Both the position numbers and the translations under genes were made by a program. Positions 24,267 through 34,789 of a stretch of DNA of 62,864 bases are shown one piece after another. Position 1 is the stretch's first letter, and every line of letters starts with the position of its first letter. The notes beneath the pieces were generated by a model. The model worked only from the letters and a program-made list of their open reading frames with translations, was not told the DNA's origin and did not search any database. The DNA is taken from IMG/VR virus record IMGVR_UViG_3300032241_001240, positions 1 to 62,864 of that record. One strand, written 5' to 3'. Source of the DNA: a virus.

Positions 24267-25724
24267 TCAATAGACTATCTTTGAAATACTAGACGGATAC
24301 TGTACCTCTGTATAAAATTTACGTCGTTTTAATAAATGCTTATTACTGAATTTGCATTTACTAGCTATATCATATATAGAAACTTCGTTTTTATCATCGG
24401 CTTTTCGTAAGCCTCGACCAATACTTTGTATTACTCGAACAAAACTTTTACCTGGTTCTAGCAATATTAGATTGAATATTCGATTTATTGAGATTCCGGT
24501 ACTTGTGGTACCGTATGTAGCTATCATTATAGCATTGTCAGCGAGATTGATATCTTTATAATGTGCCTTACGTTTGGTACTTTTCATTTTCCCACTGATA
24601 AAGGTAGCATCAGGTATTAATTCTTGTAATATTTGGCCAGTTTCGATACGATCTATTAATACGAGTGTGTTGCCAGTTTTAGAAATTTCTATAATTTTTT
24701 CAGACAACCATTTCATTCGATCTCTATTGGTTACCAGATATTTTAATTCCTCTTGATAATTGTTGTATACTACTGATTCTTGTGTATGTAAAATATTCAC
24801 ATGACACTGAGCTAAATGTCCTTGATCTTGCAATTCTTTTGCAGTGAGTTGGCCAACTAATGGACCAATTGCACTATATAAACTTACTTGATTATATTCT
24901 TCTTCTGGTATTGTACCAGTTAACCCCCAGCGTATAGGTATGTTAGAAAATGTCGTTGTCAATAAACTGTGTAATACATTCATATTTTTTACTGAATGAC
25001 ATTCGTCGCATATCACAGCTACCAAATTGTCTAAAAACACTGTCATTTGTTCGTCGTCAAGCGCATCTTTGTGTTTTTTATCTAACACCATCAAACTTTG
25101 CCATGTACAGATAGTATGCGTTCGATCATATTCTTTACGATCACCGTATAATACACCAACATCTAACCCAATATTTCGATAATCTTCTTCTGTCTGTTGA
25201 ACTAGATTTTTGTTGGGGACTATAAGTATAGTTCTGCCATATCTTTCTGCTACCTTGGCTAGAGTGGCACTTACAATTGTTTTTCCTGAACTGGTAGGAG
25301 CAACACTAATACTCTGTAGATTATTGATACACTCGTTAATTGCTTGAACTTGATAATCTCGCAGAACAATAGGCTCTCCAGCAGCTCGGTGACCTACTGG
25401 CCATACAATATGACTTAGAAAGTTTTCGGTAATTTCGCTGAACTCGAATGTATGAGTAGGTCTCTGATCAACGAGTTCAAGTTCATAACCGTGATCAGTT
25501 AATATTGGAAGAATTTTGTCTAATAAATTTAGATAAGTTCTGCCACCTAATGTACAAAAACTTGTTGTACCGTCCCATCGACCAAGCTTATAAGCAGGAC
25601 TATAACGTGCATGAGGGAGAAAATATTTTACTGCATTTACGCATGCTCGGCGAGTCGGTAAATCTAATCCTTCTAGTTTTACAGATGTCTCATTTTCAAT
25701 AATTATTTGCGCAATTTTAATCAC
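24267..25724 (-). CDS. uvsW: UvsW-like SF2 DNA/RNA helicase
   Basis: 485 aa, GTG start at 25724 with AGAGG five bases upstream. The ~100-residue N-terminal domain is followed by SF2 motifs: VLRDYQVQAI (Q-motif region), Walker A APTSSGKT (142-149), DECH box (240-243), LTGTIP (motif III) and IQSIGRGLRK (motif VI). UvsW unwinds branched DNA and R-loops and drives the switch to recombination-dependent replication. The neighbour UvsY and the nearby UvsX match the T4 recombination module. Confidence 0.93.
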   Translation of the reverse strand: MIKIAQIIIENETSVKLEGLDLPTRRACVNAVKYFLPHARYSPAYKLGRWDGTTSFCTLGGRTYLNLLDKILPILTDHGYELELVDQRPTHTFEFSEITENFLSHIVWPVGHRAAGEPIVLRDYQVQAINECINNLQSISVAPTSSGKTIVSATLAKVAERYGRTILIVPNKNLVQQTEEDYRNIGLDVGVLYGDRKEYDRTHTICTWQSLMVLDKKHKDALDDEQMTVFLDNLVAVICDECHSVKNMNVLHSLLTTTFSNIPIRWGLTGTIPEEEYNQVSLYSAIGPLVGQLTAKELQDQGHLAQCHVNILHTQESVVYNNYQEELKYLVTNRDRMKWLSEKIIEISKTGNTLVLIDRIETGQILQELIPDATFISGKMKSTKRKAHYKDINLADNAIMIATYGTTSTGISINRIFNLILLEPGKSFVRVIQSIGRGLRKADDKNEVSIYDIASKCKFSNKHLLKRRKFYTEVQYPSSISKIVY

Positions 25725-25751
25725 ATTAGCCTCTTATAGTTGCAATATCTG

Positions 25752-26225
25752 TTAATTTATACGTGTGTTATTTTCGAGAGTTACTGTTTCGAGACCAACT
25801 ACGCGCAATTTTACAATGTGGCCAATTTGCCAAGCCTTGATATCTAATCCTTTCATAAGTGCTAGATATTTGTTGCGCACAAGACCTACTTCATTAATTA
25901 TTATCGCCATACCAACTACATCGTCTTCGCCATCTATATATTTTTCTATCGATCTATCAGTTAATTGGCGATTATATCTTTCTAGATATCTTCTATAATG
26001 ATCGCTTCTTATTTTATCATATTTGATATTTAGATGTTTCAATATCGCTTCGATTTCTTGTAGTTGTCCAAATCTATGAGAGGTTATACCAGATAGTTCT
26101 TGTGAATTCTTTTCTAGATTACCTATAATTTTCGTTTCATTCTTTGCTAATTCTAATTCATTATTATAGTAATCTATTGCAAACGGAATATCACTAAGAT
26201 TTTCTACTACCCGGTTATACCACAT
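25752..26225 (-). CDS. uvsY: UvsY-like recombination mediator
   Basis: 157 aa from ATG 26225 with GAGG. Helical, charged protein: long N-terminal helix, then YDKIRSDHYRRYLERYNRQL and DRSIEKYIDGEDDVVGM, and a C-terminal helix (LVRNKYLALMKGLDIKAWQI). This matches the shape and length of UvsY, which loads UvsX onto gp32-covered single-stranded DNA. Next to UvsW, as in T4, and two genes from UvsX. Identity rests on pattern plus synteny. Confidence 0.75.
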   Translation of the reverse strand: MWYNRVVENLSDIPFAIDYYNNELELAKNETKIIGNLEKNSQELSGITSHRFGQLQEIEAILKHLNIKYDKIRSDHYRRYLERYNRQLTDRSIEKYIDGEDDVVGMAIIINEVGLVRNKYLALMKGLDIKAWQIGHIVKLRVVGLETVTLENNTRIN

Positions 26226-26257
26226 ATTTCCTCAAACTTGTAAAATATTAAAAGATA

Positions 26258-26497
26258 TCATTCTTCGTTGTAATCTAAATCATCGTTATAATCGCCATCT
26301 AGATCATTTTTAAGTTCGTCTAGTGCGTAATCAATATGTTCATCTTCTTCGCGTAAATCCTCTAAATCATTAAGTTCAATATCTTGATCAATTAAGATAC
26401 GTAAAAACCTAGACGCAGCATCGTTCTTTTTACCCAGTGGAATAAAATCTGAGAAGTGCTCCCAGATTTCTAAAATTGCACGATCAGTAATTTCCAA
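26258..26497 (-). CDS. small acidic hypothetical protein
   Basis: 79 aa, strongly acidic C-terminus (DELKNDLDGDYNDDLDYNEE). The N-terminal half is a helix-turn-helix-like pair (ILEIWEHFSDFIPLGKKNDA, SRFLRILIDQDIELNDL). It lies between UvsY and the C-terminal UvsX fragment with a gap of 3 bases to the latter. Similar short acidic proteins occur near recombination genes of other aquatic T4-like phages. Function unknown. Confidence 0.6.
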   Translation of the reverse strand: MEITDRAILEIWEHFSDFIPLGKKNDAASRFLRILIDQDIELNDLEDLREEDEHIDYALDELKNDLDGDYNDDLDYNEE

Positions 26498-26500
26498 TTT

Positions 26501-27025
26501 TCATTCTCCTGTTTCTTCTGAAATATCATGTTCTTCATCTTGTATAGGATTTATCCTACGTTCATCCCATTCATCCATAATCTTATCTAAAAAGTCATTT
26601 GTGATGGAATTACGAAAATATTTGTGTTCTACATTCGACTTGTCAATATACTTGAGTTTATTCCCGTCTTTAACCAAAATACCTTTCTTCTCAAACAACT
26701 CAATCAATCCGCTATAAGGATCCATACCTGTTTCCCAAGGAATTTTGATTTCAACGTTTTCAAATGGCTTGTTATATCTAGTCTTCATAATTTTGCATGC
26801 AGCACGAATACCACGAACATCTGTAACCTTTTTACCATCTTCGTCTTCTTTAAGCTTGCGCTTTTGCATAGCTACAACAATTGATGATGCATAGATGAAT
26901 CCTGAGTTATGGCTGACTATTCCGCTATCTAATAGATAATGATGTGCAACAGGAACTGATATATCATATACTTTCTTAATACCTATATTTTTTTTACTTT
27001 TAATTCTAATTTTTTGTAGTGACAT
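26501..27025 (-). CDS. uvsX: UvsX C-terminal fragment fused to C-terminal split-intein half
   Basis: 174 aa from ATG 27025, with its own AAAGGAG ten bases upstream. Residues 1-40 are an intein C-terminal half ending LLDSGIVSHN (block F/G: His-Asn), followed by Ser41 as the +1 nucleophile. Residues 41-174 continue UvsX: SGFIYASSIVVAMQKRKLKE, then VEIKIPWETGMDPYSGLIEL, matching the part after the conserved GG-loop of RecA/UvsX recombinases. Joined with the fragment at 28064-29014, the spliced product would be about 357 residues, near T4 UvsX (391). Its 5' end overlaps the endonuclease gene by 20 bases. Confidence 0.9.
   Translation of the reverse strand: MSLQKIRIKSKKNIGIKKVYDISVPVAHHYLLDSGIVSHNSGFIYASSIVVAMQKRKLKEDEDGKKVTDVRGIRAACKIMKTRYNKPFENVEIKIPWETGMDPYSGLIELFEKKGILVKDGNKLKYIDKSNVEHKYFRNSITNDFLDKIMDEWDERRINPIQDEEHDISEETGE
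26906..27025 (-). other. C-terminal split-intein half (40 aa) in uvsX
   Basis: Encodes MSLQKIRIKSKKNIGIKKVY then DISVPVAHHYLLDSGIVSHN. Terminal His-Asn followed by Ser is the standard C-terminal splice junction, and the length matches known split-intein C-halves (about 35-40 residues). Confidence 0.9.
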
Positions 27026-27995
27026 TTTTGATATACTCCTTTATCATTTTAATTGATTCTAGTTTGTTATCTGATTCCCAAACTACTATAGTATGATACC
27101 CCTTGGTGTTCGACATACACTGCTGCTTATTCTTATCTCTGTTCCATATTTCTTGCGCTGTTAAATTTGTCTGTTTATGTAAGTATTCAGAATTATATTT
27201 TTTTGGATTACAATGCCAATAGTCTCCATAAAACTCAACACAAAGATTATATGCTGGGACAACAAAATCGAAGAAATAATAACAATGTAAATTTGAATCT
27301 AAAATTCCATATTCACCATTTTCATTGCATGCACTATAAATTTTGCAATCAGGAAATAAATTACTCAATTCTAAAAAAAATTTATTTGCTTTTTTAGAAT
27401 TATGTCTATTTTTAAATTTTTTAGACCATAACTTTCGTCCTGCATCGTCTCCGTGATTGTTAATATACCCTTCCAATGTATAATTTATTTTTCTAGATTC
27501 ACATAGAGCATTATATTTCAACGTTCCTTCAGTTTCTCCAAATTTTGATATAAAATATTGCAAAGACATATTATCAGAACGTTGCATAATGTATGATTTA
27601 GCTTCTTCCTCACTCATTCCTCGTTCCATCCAATATTCTTTGCAAAATGGAGATCTACGTTTTCTTTCATCTGTATCATATTTTTCTAATCTCAGTTTAC
27701 TGTTAGCACGTTGTACTCTAGAAACTTGCTCTACAGCACTTTCCATTGTGTAACCTAACTTGACCCAATAATCGATGCTACGTGGACTTCGAGATTTCTG
27801 AAGTTGAGATATTTTTTCTTGAGATTCCTGCAATGATAAGCCTCTTTTGATCCAATATTCAACCGAAGTTTGACCGATTTTTTTAGGCAGTTTTAACTTT
27901 CTGCTGTTTTTGCACAATGGCGAACATACATATTGTATAGTCATTATACTATCTTTTTTTCTTATCATTTTTCCGCATTCAACGCACGGTTTCAT
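27006..27995 (-). CDS. free-standing homing endonuclease (Vsr-like) inside split uvsX
   Basis: 329 aa from ATG 27995 with GGAGG; a late promoter-like GCTAAATA lies at 28029-28036. It begins with a Cys4 zinc-binding module (CVECGK...CSPLCKN), followed by three related helical repeats (SVEYWIKRGLSLQESQEKIS, SIDYWVKLGYTMESAVEQVS, CKEYWMERGMSEEEAKSYIM) that resemble DNA-binding modules. The C-terminal ~110 residues have a Vsr/PD-(D/E)XK-like nuclease core: YYFFDFVVPAYNLCVEFYGD, then YWHC and WNRDKNKQQCMSNTKGYHTI. It would cut an uninterrupted uvsX allele and spread the insertion. Nuclease class is by pattern. Confidence 0.85.
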   Translation of the reverse strand: MKPCVECGKMIRKKDSIMTIQYVCSPLCKNSRKLKLPKKIGQTSVEYWIKRGLSLQESQEKISQLQKSRSPRSIDYWVKLGYTMESAVEQVSRVQRANSKLRLEKYDTDERKRRSPFCKEYWMERGMSEEEAKSYIMQRSDNMSLQYFISKFGETEGTLKYNALCESRKINYTLEGYINNHGDDAGRKLWSKKFKNRHNSKKANKFFLELSNLFPDCKIYSACNENGEYGILDSNLHCYYFFDFVVPAYNLCVEFYGDYWHCNPKKYNSEYLHKQTNLTAQEIWNRDKNKQQCMSNTKGYHTIVVWESDNKLESIKMIKEYIKNVTTKN

Positions 27996-28028
27996 GTGAT
28001 TAACCTCCAGTAATTTGTGTGTTGTAGA

Positions 28029-28036
28029 TATTTAGC
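28029..28036 (-). promoter_or_regulatory. T4-type late promoter-like octamer (GCTAAATA)
   Basis: Minus-strand GCTAAATA between the N-terminal UvsX fragment and the endonuclease gene. It could give separate expression of the endonuclease and the C-terminal UvsX fragment. Confidence 0.4.
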
Positions 28037-28063
28037 AAATTACTGGAGGGCAAGGGTTATTAG

Positions 28064-28345
28064 TTACACAACTTGTAATATTTCATCATTTTCAGACAAT
28101 TCTGCTACAGTTTTCCACACCAATTGATTATCAAGCTGTTGCGTTAAAAACTTATGTTCGTTAGTGGCCTGAATTATTTCACCAGTTTCTAATTCAATTT
28201 CAATTACTTCTTTGTCATCAAATGTAAACGTTTCTGAAACATCGATATCACCATCTAATGTAACAACAACATCCCCTTGCTGAATATCTTCAATATTCTT
28301 TGATGAACCGTCTGCCATCCAGATTTTATGCCCGGCTGTTAAACA
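28064..28345 (-). other. N-terminal split-intein half (93 aa) in uvsX
   Basis: Starts with Cys (codon 28343-28345) directly after the UvsX Gly-Gly and ends at a natural stop after NDEILQVV. The length fits known split-intein N-halves of about 90 residues. Confidence 0.9.
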
Positions 28346-29014
28346 ACCTCCACTAATTTTGTCATCTGGATCAAACATATCTTGACTAGCATAGCTATGA
28401 TTGGTTACTACCATACCAACATCATATTCACCAAACATATTCACACAGTTACGAACTAGGGCTGTAAGTGCCTTTGGTTTACGACCCATATCACCCTTTA
28501 AATCGCCTGCTTCGAATTGATTCACATCAGTTGGGGTTAATAACATACCGAGACTGTCTAACACAAACAAAATCTTTGGTCGGTCCTCTTCTGGTACGGT
28601 GTCAAACCGCGACTTGTAATCTTTCATAAAGTCACTCATTAATCTAGCTACGTCGTCAATCATAGACATATTAACCTTAAGTAACTTTTCTTCACTGGTA
28701 TCAACACCAAGTGGCTTTAACCAATTTTCGTCAAGTGCATTTTCTGTGTCAATTAATACAACGAAAATACCCTGTTTTTGTGCATTGCGCACCAAATTAC
28801 CCGAACAAATATACGATTTACCGCTGCCTGACTGGCCTGCAAACATAGTAACCTTTCCTAGAGGGATACCGCGTCTAAAGTTACCAGATATACCATAATT
28901 AAGTGCATAGTTGCCGCTATCAATCCAATGCTTTGGATCGTGGAATCCAAGAGAAATACCTGGAATACTTTTTGTTAGGTCACGTCTAAACTTTGAAAGA
29001 TCAAACGGTTTCAT
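28064..29014 (-). CDS. uvsX: UvsX N-terminal fragment fused to N-terminal split-intein half
   Basis: 316 aa from ATG 29014 (AGGAG site). Residues 1-223 are the RecA-like recombinase: Walker A GQSGSGKS (60-67), Walker B LFVLDSLG (~149-156) and MVVTNHSYASQDM before the loop ending KISGG. Cys224 begins the intein: CLTAGHKIWMADGSSKNIED (block A), EHKFLTQQ near the block B position, and a stop 93 residues later without block F/G. UvsX forms the recombination filament for strand exchange and replication restart. It is separated from the rest of the gene by 1038 bases and needs trans-splicing to give full UvsX. Confidence 0.93.
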   Translation of the reverse strand: MKPFDLSKFRRDLTKSIPGISLGFHDPKHWIDSGNYALNYGISGNFRRGIPLGKVTMFAGQSGSGKSYICSGNLVRNAQKQGIFVVLIDTENALDENWLKPLGVDTSEEKLLKVNMSMIDDVARLMSDFMKDYKSRFDTVPEEDRPKILFVLDSLGMLLTPTDVNQFEAGDLKGDMGRKPKALTALVRNCVNMFGEYDVGMVVTNHSYASQDMFDPDDKISGGCLTAGHKIWMADGSSKNIEDIQQGDVVVTLDGDIDVSETFTFDDKEVIEIELETGEIIQATNEHKFLTQQLDNQLVWKTVAELSENDEILQVV

Positions 29015-29070
29015 GTTATTCTCCTGTTAATAAAATGACGATAGATAATGTGAGTTGTATTATTTAAAAA

Positions 29071-29099
29071 TATGGGGGAGGTCGTACACCTCCCCCATA
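29071..29099 (-). terminator. rho-independent terminator after gp32
   Basis: 12-bp perfect stem TATGGGGGAGGT / ACCTCCCCCATA with a 5-base loop. On the minus strand it is followed by ATTTTTAAAT, so it ends gp32 transcription before uvsX. Confidence 0.85.
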
Positions 29100-29103
29100 A
29101 TTA

Positions 29104-30156
29104 TCACTTTTGTTGCTGACGCTTACGAATCGCAGCAATGATCTCGTCTGGAGTCTGCATCTTTTTCTCAGAAGCAGGTGCAGACGAAGCCGTAGTATTA
29201 GGCTCTTCCCACGGTGGAGAATTATCTTCTTCAACTACTGCAGGCTTGGTAGGCAATCTATTTAGAATGCTGCTTGCAGTAACCTTTGGAGTAGAAACTG
29301 GTGTTGATACAGCAGTTGACGAGCTGTTATCGGAATCATTGTTAGCGTTATCTAAACGCATACCATTTGGTCGATAGAATTGACCCCATCGATCAACATC
29401 GTACAATTCCTCATCTACACTTGCTCTGAATAATTCCATAATAGCAGCTAAATGTGCATCATCAGGCTTCTTTGGTAAGAAACTTGATAAATTCCACAAA
29501 CCATGTTGGTTAATAGCAGTAATCTCAGCATCTGTTAAAGCACGCTCTTTCATTGCCCATTTGCTGCTAGCATAATTTGCATAGTTACCTTTTGAACTTT
29601 TGAGTAGATAAAAATCTCTACCTTTATCATAGTCAGTAGGACTGTGCTCGAGATCCTGGTCCATGAGAATAGACTTGACAATATCAAATACCGACGTATT
29701 TATGACAAATCGACGAATAGGATTCTCTGGTTCTTGATCATCCTTGTTAGGGTTTGACGTTACAAATCCTTGAAATAAATAGCTCTTCTTACGGTAATAC
29801 TTGCGAGCCATGTCTTCTAAGCTTTTGTCCTTCCACCAAGGACGAATTTCAGCTGTTATCGGACAAGTACCCGACTTCCACATATCGGTGCAAGGAACTT
29901 GAACTTCAACAGGCTTTGAAATTGGATCGCCTTTAACACCTGGGAACGGAAGCTTAATAATAAGTCGTTCTATCCAGAAAAAGTCATTTGATTCGTCGCC
30001 ATCTGGAAGGAATCGTAATGTTGCGCTTGATCCTTCAGGATTATTCCAGAATGGATAAATGGCATTATCGCCACCGAAGCCGCCGCTTTTTGCGCGGTCT
30101 TTATTAGCTTGTTGAGCCAATAGTTTTGCTTGTATTTCTTTAAGAGTTAGTGCCAT
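29104..30156 (-). CDS. gp32: single-stranded DNA-binding protein (T4 gp32-like)
   Basis: 350 aa. Basic N-terminal arm (LKEIQAKLLAQQANKDRAKS), then an OB-fold core with NAIYPFWNNPEGSSATLRFL, FFWIERLIIKLPFPG and CTDMWKSGTCPITAEIRPWW, typical of gp32 of marine T4-like phages. The C-terminal ~90 residues are low-complexity Ser/Thr/Ala/Asn, acidic and Pro-rich, ending in a helix (DEIIAAIRKRQQQK), whereas T4 ends acidic. It covers ssDNA and recruits UvsY and the helicase. Perfect late promoter TATAAATA at 30233-30240, leader hairpin at 30199-30222, terminator at 29071-29099. Confidence 0.92.
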   Translation of the reverse strand: MALTLKEIQAKLLAQQANKDRAKSGGFGGDNAIYPFWNNPEGSSATLRFLPDGDESNDFFWIERLIIKLPFPGVKGDPISKPVEVQVPCTDMWKSGTCPITAEIRPWWKDKSLEDMARKYYRKKSYLFQGFVTSNPNKDDQEPENPIRRFVINTSVFDIVKSILMDQDLEHSPTDYDKGRDFYLLKSSKGNYANYASSKWAMKERALTDAEITAINQHGLWNLSSFLPKKPDDAHLAAIMELFRASVDEELYDVDRWGQFYRPNGMRLDNANNDSDNSSSTAVSTPVSTPKVTASSILNRLPTKPAVVEEDNSPPWEEPNTTASSAPASEKKMQTPDEIIAAIRKRQQQK

Positions 30157-30198
30157 ATTGTGTGCCTCCTTGTGTGCCTATTAATGGGTTTAAGATAA

Positions 30199-30222
30199 CA
30201 AGGGAAACTCCTTCGTCCCTTG
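30199..30222 (-). promoter_or_regulatory. gp32 leader hairpin
   Basis: CAAGGGA / TCCCTTG stem with a 10-base loop containing AAGGAG in the ~75-base leader of the gp32 mRNA. T4 gp32 represses its own translation through a leader RNA structure, so an equivalent role is plausible. No pseudoknot partner for the loop was found. Confidence 0.45.
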
Positions 30223-32604: not shown

Positions 32605-34482
32605 TTAATTTATTATCACAGAGAACGGCAGAGGATCTCGATGTTCAGTTTCATTGTCATCGAACACATCTTTCATCAATTCTCCAACTTTATCATCCCA
32701 ATTAGTGACCATTTGCATCATACGTATACACAGGATTGTAGCCATAACACAGTCATCATTTTCGCCTTGTTTAGCCGAAAATCCATCGCCTTTGGATATG
32801 AAAAATTTCAATTGTTTGATTAACATTTTGCTTTTAATTTGCAATCTATTGCTTTCTACAAGACTCTTTAGTTTGCTACAAGCATTAGCTTTGCTGCGAC
32901 CATTCGTGTTCAAACCTTTACGATATCGCACTAATCCAGTTCTACGAGTTTCATTCAACAATTGACCCATAAAATTTTCTTCGCCTATATCATTTATCGT
33001 TTGTAGAGCAGCTTCTCCCCATGTATTGTTTTCAAAGGTAAAATAAATGTCTGGTTCACCTTTGAATCCAGATTTTTTACAATCGTCGTAAATCTTATTG
33101 ATGATAGTTTGCATTGTGCGTACCTGATTGGGGATACTGGTTTTACTACTGGTCCATTCTGCTATTTGTGACATATCTGGTAAACTCCAGACTTCGATAG
33201 CAGCAGGATCTTTCCCTACACCTGCACTCGGGTCTAGACTTACTAGATAAGTTCGATCTGTGGTTATGCGATCATACCAACGTATTTCGCCAGTTTTATA
33301 AAGAGGATCAGATCCTCGTAACCGTTGTAATGTAACCCCGCCTATAAGTGTACTTTCTTCACCGGCGAATTGACAGCAATATTCTCTTAGAAATCTCTCC
33401 TCTCCAATTTTAGCACGCTCAACATCTGCCCAAACTTCGTCGCGGCCTGGTACATCACTATAATGAGCAGAGAATCCTTTGAAGCCATTAACACCCACTC
33501 CATTCAGTATTTCATTACCGTGCTCATCAATGGTGTTTATGGCGCCAAACCATAATTCTGCAAACATATCTTCGTCACTTGCCGGAGTTGATGTTATGAT
33601 ACATTTACCACCTGTTGCCAATGTCGGTGCCATAGCCGTCCAAAATTCTCTTGCAACTCCTGGCCGAACGAACGCAAATTCGTCTAGATATAATAAACTA
33701 ATAGCCATACCTCGACCGCTATCTGGTGTAGTAGTTGTAGCAACTATGCGCGATCCGTTGTCAAATCTTATGCTTGTTACGTTATACTCTGTAACACCTG
33801 CACGTATATGATTTGGCATTTCTTCATATGCATATTTGATACGCATCATTATTTCGTTAGCTGCTTTGAATTTGTTTGCTGCTATTAACACTGTAACATC
33901 GTCGTGATACATAGCATACCATAACAAATAACCGGCCGCAGTCGTTGTATTATGACTTAAAATACCATTTGTATAATAACGATGATCGGGTGATTCCACC
34001 GAAACATCATACATGTTGTCATATAAATCACTGATTTTTAACGATTTTACTGATACTACACCAGAATCTGTTTGTATCAAACAACCAGGGGTTAGATCTT
34101 TAACAAAGATCTCATTATAATTTTCGTCAAATACAATATGATTGTCTGCACAAAAAAGGTGATACCCGTTGTCTAGCAACAATTCGTATACTTGATATTC
34201 TATGGTTTTTGATATTTCTGTACAAGGCTGCCAACCAGAGTCTGTTAATATATCCCAATCATCCAGGGATATTTGATCTATAAATTTTCGATCTACTGTT
34301 TCAGACATTGCATGCATTGTTCTATTACCTTTTTGGGTTTGATTTATATTACGATCAACCATACTACCGTCGTCGGGCTGTACTGACTGTGTCTCTTCTT
34401 TTGTATTGACTGATATCTGGTAAGGTTGTTCCTGCTCGCATACAAGCAGCCCATTCGTAATAGGTCCCAATTGGGATATCAT
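32605..34482 (-). CDS. gp17: large terminase C-terminal fragment with C-terminal intein part
   Basis: 625 aa from ATG 34482, preceded by AGGAGAAATTT (ideal site). Residues 1-178 are non-terminase; from ~68 they are intein (FIDQISLDDWDILTDSGWQP, ADNHIVF, ...DVSVESPDHRYYTNGILSHN with terminal His-Asn). Thr179 is the +1 residue and resumes the terminase exactly after its Walker A lysine: TTTAAGYLLWYAMY. Walker B is LLYLDEF (D267-E268). Nuclease motifs are YLVSLDPSAGVGKDP, FENNTWGEA and GENDDCVMA (acidic residues of the RNase H-like domain). It pumps DNA into the head and cuts it. It cannot work without residues 1-84 on the other ORF. Confidence 0.9.
   Translation of the reverse strand: MISQLGPITNGLLVCEQEQPYQISVNTKEETQSVQPDDGSMVDRNINQTQKGNRTMHAMSETVDRKFIDQISLDDWDILTDSGWQPCTEISKTIEYQVYELLLDNGYHLFCADNHIVFDENYNEIFVKDLTPGCLIQTDSGVVSVKSLKISDLYDNMYDVSVESPDHRYYTNGILSHNTTTAAGYLLWYAMYHDDVTVLIAANKFKAANEIMMRIKYAYEEMPNHIRAGVTEYNVTSIRFDNGSRIVATTTTPDSGRGMAISLLYLDEFAFVRPGVAREFWTAMAPTLATGGKCIITSTPASDEDMFAELWFGAINTIDEHGNEILNGVGVNGFKGFSAHYSDVPGRDEVWADVERAKIGEERFLREYCCQFAGEESTLIGGVTLQRLRGSDPLYKTGEIRWYDRITTDRTYLVSLDPSAGVGKDPAAIEVWSLPDMSQIAEWTSSKTSIPNQVRTMQTIINKIYDDCKKSGFKGEPDIYFTFENNTWGEAALQTINDIGEENFMGQLLNETRRTGLVRYRKGLNTNGRSKANACSKLKSLVESNRLQIKSKMLIKQLKFFISKGDGFSAKQGENDDCVMATILCIRMMQMVTNWDDKVGELMKDVFDDNETEHRDPLPFSVIIN
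33949..34482 (-). other. C-terminal part of TerL intein (up to 178 aa)
   Basis: Ends ILSHN followed by Thr of the terminase P-loop. Recognisable intein sequence begins near KFIDQISLDDWDIL; the first ~60 residues have no intein similarity that I can see and may be a spacer or result from a frame change. Confidence 0.8.
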
Positions 34483-34537
34483 AAATTTCTCCTGTGGATT
34501 GTTGTTTAATACTAATTAAAGTATCATGTACAACACA
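34364..34537 (-). other. N-terminal part of TerL intein (57 aa)
   Basis: Cys1 codon 34535-34537 follows the P-loop lysine of the terminase; reading stops at TAG 34364-34366. The short N-part and the break position after the first ~30-50 residues resemble the atypically split TerL inteins such as AceL-TerL. Confidence 0.82.
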
Positions 34538-34789
34538 TTTCCCACTCTGCCTCGGAATCATAGCCAGCACGTTTCTGTATTCATCATAAGCGTGTACCAA
34601 ATCACGCTGAAACAGATATGCTTCAAAAGGTACTTTACCTTTTGTTGGATGCTGGATATACATAAAATGTTCCATAAACCATAAAGGGTCTTTGTGACAT
34701 TTGACTAGCTCTTGTAGCTGTTCTTTAGTCATCGGAACTTTTAATCCAGGCGGTTTTAATTTTTCAAAATCTGTTGTATTCTTTCCCAT
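34364..34789 (-). CDS. gp17: large terminase N-terminal fragment with N-terminal intein part
   Basis: 141 aa from ATG 34789. Residues 1-84 are the TerL N-terminus: PLWFMEHFMYIQHPTKGKVP, FQRDLVHAYDEYRNVLAMIP and RQSGK, the Walker A motif up to its lysine. Cys85 begins an intein (CVVHDTLISIKQQSTGEIYD, block A), which continues as IPIGTYYEWAACMRAG and stops after TARRR. It overlaps the C-terminal ORF by 119 bases in another frame. The product would splice with the 34482 ORF to give a terminase of about 531 residues. Either a natural split intein or a frame-shifted continuous intein. Confidence 0.88.
   Translation of the reverse strand: MGKNTTDFEKLKPPGLKVPMTKEQLQELVKCHKDPLWFMEHFMYIQHPTKGKVPFEAYLFQRDLVHAYDEYRNVLAMIPRQSGKCVVHDTLISIKQQSTGEIYDIPIGTYYEWAACMRAGTTLPDISQYKRRDTVSTARRR

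What the first reader, a model, noticed from the sequence alone, without database searches (positions are those of the whole stretch)
26501..29014. Fractured uvsX: split intein with a free-standing homing endonuclease between the halves
Seen: the UvsX N-part (28064-29014) ends in a 93-aa intein half beginning with Cys. 36 bases after its stop codon, and 69 bases before the next ATG, a late promoter-like octamer leads into a 329-aa endonuclease gene. The next ORF begins with a 40-aa intein half ending His-Asn, followed by Ser and the rest of UvsX. The break is in the conserved loop ISGG / SGFIYAS. Known: fractured genes with split inteins and Vsr-like endonucleases were found in phage metagenomes for other genes. 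Inferred: the essential recombinase is rebuilt by protein trans-splicing, and the endonuclease spreads the whole cassette. Because the C-part overlaps the endonuclease by 20 bases, its expression is tied to it.
Basis: partly seen in the sequence, partly recalled or inferred. Interest (0 to 1): 0.92.

Follow-up and report, generated by a model that had tools for sequence, protein, structure and literature searches.

The report
Split uvsX recombinase with homing endonuclease
In this large phage, the gene for the DNA-recombination protein UvsX is broken into two pieces by a split intein (a protein segment that joins its flanks and drops out), and a mobile DNA-cutting gene sits between the pieces; nearly identical copies of this cassette have jumped recently between distantly related phages.

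Summary
UvsX is encoded in two ORFs that end and begin in the halves of a class-1 intein with all catalytic residues. A Vsr-like homing endonuclease (HEN) gene lies between them on the same strand. The arrangement recurs in 9 further phage contigs with a near-identical HEN, and in 6 contigs with a HEN only 41-48% identical, so it is not an assembly error. Mobility is shown by sequence. In two phages (L009, L012) the cassette is identical over 1,481 bp while the flanking uvsX is about 77% identical. Across relatives the cassette has dS 0.27-0.45 against mostly saturated exteins. Relatives hold empty sites (nearly all with Gln where the intein allele has Ser), HEN-less split alleles, and a uvsX in three pieces. 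The HEN's ribosome-binding site is locked in a 14-bp hairpin whose loop carries a T4-like late promoter, as for I-TevI. This is a new member of the known 'fractured gene' kind (Dassa 2009), in uvsX. Trans-splicing and cleavage remain inferred. The window's terL is also split, its HEN lost.

The parts
28064..29014 (-). UvsX N-part ORF (316 aa)
   Evidence: phrog_97 UvsX-like 6e-47
28346..29014 (-). UvsX N-extein (aa 1-223), ends ISGG in the RecA-type L2 loop
   Evidence: contiguous with the C-extein in about 70 intein-less relatives
28067..28345 (-). Intein N-half (93 aa), Cys1, block B T..H
28004..28049 (-). 14-bp hairpin; 3' arm holds the HEN Shine-Dalgarno (GGAGG)
   Evidence: conserved in all HEN+ relatives of this clade, lost in L008
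28029..28035 (-). T4-like late promoter core CTAAATA in the hairpin loop
   Evidence: TAAATA upstream of ORFs 18 vs 2.2 expected
27006..27995 (-). Vsr-like (EDxHD-type) homing endonuclease gene, 329 aa
27075..27311 (-). Predicted nuclease domain of the HEN (aa 229-307: D243, E254, G257, H261, D287 invariant in 40 relatives)
27036..27042 (-). Shine-Dalgarno of UvsX-C, inside the HEN 3' end
   Evidence: kept in HEN-less L008
26501..27025 (-). UvsX C-part ORF (174 aa); overlaps the HEN by 20 nt (27006-27025)
   Evidence: phrog_18112 recombinase 2e-22
26906..27025 (-). Intein C-half (40 aa, ends His-Asn)
26504..26905 (-). UvsX C-extein (134 aa), +1 Ser

Best explanation
A mobile 'fractured gene' cassette. 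UvsX-N and UvsX-C are translated separately, the intein halves find each other and trans-splice, giving a 357-residue UvsX with a Gly-Gly-Ser junction (inferred from intact chemistry). The HEN between them cuts intein-less uvsX at the L2-loop site; repair from the occupied allele copies intein-N, hairpin, HEN and intein-C together with the Ser codon that replaces Gln (horizontal spread shown by sequence; cleavage inferred). In early read-through transcripts the hairpin hides the HEN's ribosome-binding site. Late transcripts starting in the loop lack the 5' arm and allow HEN translation (inferred from anatomy and the T4 precedent). UvsX-C is translated from its own Shine-Dalgarno embedded in the HEN's 3' end, which protects that end from deletion.
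For: Intein: Pfam Intein_splicing 1e-7; PDB split DnaE inteins 3e-10 and gp41-1 1e-3; Cys1, T..H, block F Asp, His-Asn and Ser/Cys+1 kept in 10-11 alleles with 53-96% identity. HEN: profile of 40 relatives hits Vsr (E 0.004), I-Bth0305I only weakly; AF2 model (pLDDT 90) matches 1vsr at prob 0.97. HENs cluster by insertion site on the tree. Mobility: dS 0.27-0.45 in the cassette vs mostly saturated exteins; 1,481 bp identical in L009/L012 inside about 77% identical flanks; occupied/empty pair L011/L021 differing at the site by exactly the cassette plus a Gln-to-Ser codon. HEN dN/dS about 0.15, intein-N about 0.06. Regulation: with the T4 HEG precedent in PMC2988022.
Against: No protein-level evidence of splicing and no cleavage assay. 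The insertion site is not unusually conserved as DNA (rank 465 of 945 windows), so the HEN must tolerate wobble differences. The fold match to Vsr has a weak E-value (0.09). The late promoter is a motif, not a mapped start.
Confidence: 0.88

Rival explanations
1. UvsX works as two unspliced chains, like NrdA of Aeromonas phage Aeh1, and the intein halves are dead remnants.
For: Genes in pieces without splicing are known (nucleotide reductase split by a HEG, cited in PMC10448857).
Against: All intein catalytic residues are invariant in diverse alleles; intein-N dN/dS about 0.06; the break lies in the L2 loop; a continuous intein sits at the same site in SCTP-2.
Confidence: 0.05
2. Assembly error or pseudogene: HEN wrongly inserted, or uvsX broken.
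For: Metagenomic origin of the window (virus record).
Against: Same arrangement in 9 further contigs from different data sets, in 6 divergent alleles, and in GenBank phages for other genes; exteins stay highly conserved.
Confidence: 0.01
3. Split intein with an inert or domesticated HEN: the cassette spread by general phage recombination, not by HEN cutting.
For: Phages of this family recombine often; L008 is itself a recombinant.
Against: Identity borders fall at the insertion site, 3 nt before and 41 nt after it; HEN under purifying selection (dN 0.05, dS 0.34) with an intact catalytic core; HEN clades match insertion sites.
Confidence: 0.06

Closest known systems
Fractured genes with split inteins and Vsr-like HENs (Dassa et al. 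2009, NAR; not held here, abstract recalled)
   Same: Conserved replication/repair gene broken by a split intein, free-standing Vsr-like HEN between, control elements brought with the HEN
   Different: Host gene uvsX at the L2-loop site; population evidence of transfer, empty/occupied pair, HEN-less alleles, three-piece uvsX; whether Dassa's eight enzymes include this site could not be checked
Aes123 PolB1 split intein (Aeromonas phage; PMC11923092) and MIJ3 split PolB (PMC6892783)
   Same: Split intein in an essential phage gene; the Aes123 'VSR endonuclease' is a relative of this HEN (29%, 7e-13); the Aes123 intein is shown to trans-splice
   Different: Different gene and intein; Aes123 is cysteine-less, this one has Cys1; the MIJ3 paper reports an HNH-family HEN
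Canonical naturally split inteins: Npu/Ssp DnaE, gp41-1
   Same: Split at the HEN position, about 93 + 40 residues
   Different: DnaE halves have no HEN between them; low sequence identity
Atypically split inteins (VidaL, AceL-TerL)
   Same: VidaL, from memory a Lake Vida UvsX intein, resembles the short intein-N at uvsX site a in relatives
   Different: The window intein is canonically split and at another uvsX site (L2 loop)
T4-type homing endonucleases I-TevI, SegB, Aeh1 MobE; SegA cuts uvsX (PMC2988022)
   Same: Late promoter within a hairpin that hides the HEN ribosome-binding site
   Different: GIY-YIG/HNH enzymes in introns or free-standing

Membership tests
Fractured gene (Dassa type) | Essential gene in two ORFs ending/starting in complementary intein halves | tested here: met
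Fractured gene (Dassa type) | Free-standing endonuclease gene between the halves, same strand | tested here: met
   recurs in 9 + 6 further contigs
Fractured gene (Dassa type) | Endonuclease is Vsr-related | tested here: met
   Profile vs Vsr 1odg/1vsr/1cw0 E 0.004-0.005; Foldseek 1vsr prob 0.97 but E 0.09
Fractured gene (Dassa type) | Protein trans-splicing occurs | not testable with these tools
   Only residue conservation and selection
Fractured gene (Dassa type) | Mobility of the cassette | tested here: met
   Identical 1,481-bp cassette in diverged backgrounds, low dS, empty/occupied pair
Canonically split class-1 intein | Cys1, block B T..H, block F Asp, His-Asn end, Ser/Thr/Cys +1 | tested here: met
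EDxHD homing endonuclease (I-Bth0305I) | EDxHD active-site motif and fold | tested here: inconclusive
   Invariant D243, E254, G257, H261, D287; hit to 3R3P only E 1.1
T4-type hairpin-regulated HEG | Hairpin sequesters RBS with late promoter inside it | tested here: met
T4-type hairpin-regulated HEG | Late transcript starts in the loop | not testable with these tools
   needs RNA mapping
Group I intron-encoded HEN | Self-splicing intron RNA around the HEN | tested here: not met
   No Rfam match at E <= 1 in 25500-30200

The most novel reading that the evidence does not exclude
In related phages (L013/L014/L016, and probably L149) uvsX is fractured at two sites, Walker A (intein-N of about 15 aa) and the L2 loop. 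One recombinase would be rebuilt from three polypeptides by two different split inteins, each site having its own HEN clade. Because UvsX carries out recombinational repair, these elements sit inside the enzyme that their own homing is likely to need.
Probability: 0.75. Interest if true: 0.68.

Novelty: new member of a known kind. Interest (0 to 1): 0.55.

Why it matters
It gives a natural set of alleles of one fractured gene: empty, occupied, freshly transferred, HEN-deleted, HEN-decayed, free-standing HEN beside an intact gene, and a continuous mini-intein. This makes the life cycle of split-intein homing, and the origin of split inteins, directly testable. The uvsX intein is a new canonically split candidate for protein engineering, and the three-piece uvsX offers a natural pair of split inteins that must work without cross-talk.

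Tried and rejected
Group I intron around the HEN: no Rfam hit. HEN targeting an unusually conserved DNA site: not so, rank 465 of 945. Single-sequence HEN search of the PDB found nothing useful; only the 40-member profile did. Pfam on the HEN alone is uninformative. Co-conversion in L011 from L009/L012 as donors: differences cluster in the first 205 nt of the C-extein (15/205 vs 16/869, Fisher p 2e-4) but mostly do not match those donors, so only suggestive. Dassa 2009 is not held, so the exact eight gene types were not verified; Thiel 2014 and Burton 2020 did not appear in the searches.

Full report
Observation. The minus strand reads, in order, SSB-like gene, UvsX-N, HEN, UvsX-C, small ORFs, UvsW-like helicase. 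UvsX-N (28064-29014) ends ISGG followed by 93 residues starting CLTAGHKIW; UvsX-C (26501-27025) begins with 40 residues ending SHN and continues SGFIYAS. The HEN (27006-27995) lies between and overlaps UvsX-C by 20 nt. All stated features exist; only the promoter distances were muddled (the CTAAATA core is 28 nt after the stop and 33 nt before the HEN ATG).

What the pieces are. The joined intein halves match split DnaE inteins (3e-10) and gp41-1 (1e-3) in the PDB. Residues of the splicing chemistry are invariant across 10-11 alleles. PHROG family 18112 already groups UvsX C-parts that start in an intein-C. A 40-member profile of the HEN hits Vsr endonucleases and, weakly, the phage recA-intron enzyme I-Bth0305I (3R3P, 'mobile intron protein'); the AlphaFold2 model (mean pLDDT 90) finds Vsr and Vsr-like PvuRts1I/AbaSI (E-values 0.06-0.4, so supportive only).

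Relatives. Of 80 IMG/VR loci found with UvsX-C, most carry an uninterrupted uvsX reading ISGG-Q-GFIYAS. Every intein allele of the window's clade reads GG-[intein]-S. Near-identical HEN alleles occur in 9 contigs. Six further contigs hold HENs 41-48% identical, five of them distinct alleles of the same uvsX site (L136-L141, L136 and L137 being copies). L008 has lost HEN and hairpin (27 HEN codons remain) but keeps both uvsX parts. L149 keeps only the HEN's catalytic end. L135 has an intact uvsX with Ser at the junction and a free-standing HEN 54 nt downstream that nests among the uvsX-site HENs. Salicola phage SCTP-2 has continuous mini-inteins at both uvsX sites. L013, L014 and L016, three assemblies of one phage (99.98-100% identical over 4.4 kb), have uvsX in three pieces with a HEN in each gap.

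Mobility. Between the window and other occupied alleles, intein and HEN have dS 0.27-0.45 and dN 0.01-0.06, while the exteins and neighbouring genes are mostly saturated at synonymous sites; the lowest flank value is 0.58, the L013 C-extein, whose first 50 codons are unusually close to the window, as expected if flanking sequence was co-copied. L009 and L012 share an identical 1,481-bp block that starts 3 nt before the insertion site and ends 41 nt into the C-extein, in backgrounds about 77% identical. L011 and L021 (uvsX exteins about 97% identical) differ at the site by exactly the cassette plus the Ser/Gln codon. This shows horizontal transfer of the cassette as a unit; that the HEN drives it by cutting is inferred.

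Regulation. TAAATA is the most enriched element upstream of ORFs in the window (18 vs 2.2 expected), matching the T4 late promoter TATAAATA. One copy lies in the loop of the hairpin whose 3' arm contains the HEN Shine-Dalgarno. The stem is almost unchanged across the clade (one substitution in L015) while the loop varies. L138 and L155 carry different stems with the same design. TAAATA occurs within 90 nt upstream of 22 of 44 HENs, expected about 3.3. T4 I-TevI, SegB and Aeh1 MobE use this design (PMC2988022).

UvsX-C has its own Shine-Dalgarno in the HEN's last codons; in 33 of 35 HEN loci with a recognisable intein-C, the C-part ORF overlaps the HEN end. L008 shows the HEN is dispensable for the arrangement. 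The overlap protects the HEN's 3' end; it does not tie UvsX-C to HEN translation.

Wider picture. HENs of this family (511 candidates, best 80 examined) lie between intein halves in uvsX (two sites), polB, dnaB/gp41, uvsW, gp46/SbcC-like genes, terL and others; at least 35 of 49 have a strict intein-C motif downstream. HEN clades track insertion site (9 changes for 10 groups, shuffled mean 28). Gene names other than uvsX, polB and terL were judged from motifs and partial similarity, not by a family scan.

Verdict. A real and active-looking mobile element, a new member of the fractured-gene kind. Splicing and cleavage remain to be shown at the bench.

Noticed in passing
window 34364-34789(-) and 32605-34482(-): The terminase large subunit (terL) is also split by an intein at its Walker A (PRQSGK|C...HN|TTTAAG), about 46 nt between N-part stop and the likely C-part ATG at 34317, with no HEN. 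Relative L098 still has a HEN C-terminal remnant there, so the HEN was probably lost. Many relatives (e.g. L103, L112, L116) have an uninterrupted terL.
   Followed up: partly
L013 2412-6528, L014, L016; L149: uvsX in three pieces with split inteins at Walker A (intein-N about 15 aa) and at the L2 loop, each gap with its own HEN in L013-type; L149 shows the second piece and the start of the third with a decayed HEN.
   Followed up: partly
L003 (Pseudomonas phage PA5oct) 920-3926: PA5oct uvsX is fractured at Walker A with a HEN between; its N-part and HEN are annotated as hypothetical proteins. The related MIJ3 genome paper reports only a split PolB.
   Followed up: partly
L135 1717-3906: Intact uvsX with Ser (not Gln) at the insertion site and a free-standing HEN 54 nt downstream that nests within the intein-site HEN clade; possible intein loss with HEN relocation, unexplained.
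   Followed up: partly
L006 (Vibrio phage VPALA), L007 (Klebsiella phage KP13-7): PolB fractured by split inteins with relatives of this HEN between the halves; in KP13-7 the C-part also overlaps the HEN by 20 nt.
   Followed up: yes
window, upstream of many ORFs: TAAATA element 18-52 nt before 17 ORF starts (a further one at 11 nt), consistent with T4-like late promoters.
   Followed up: partly
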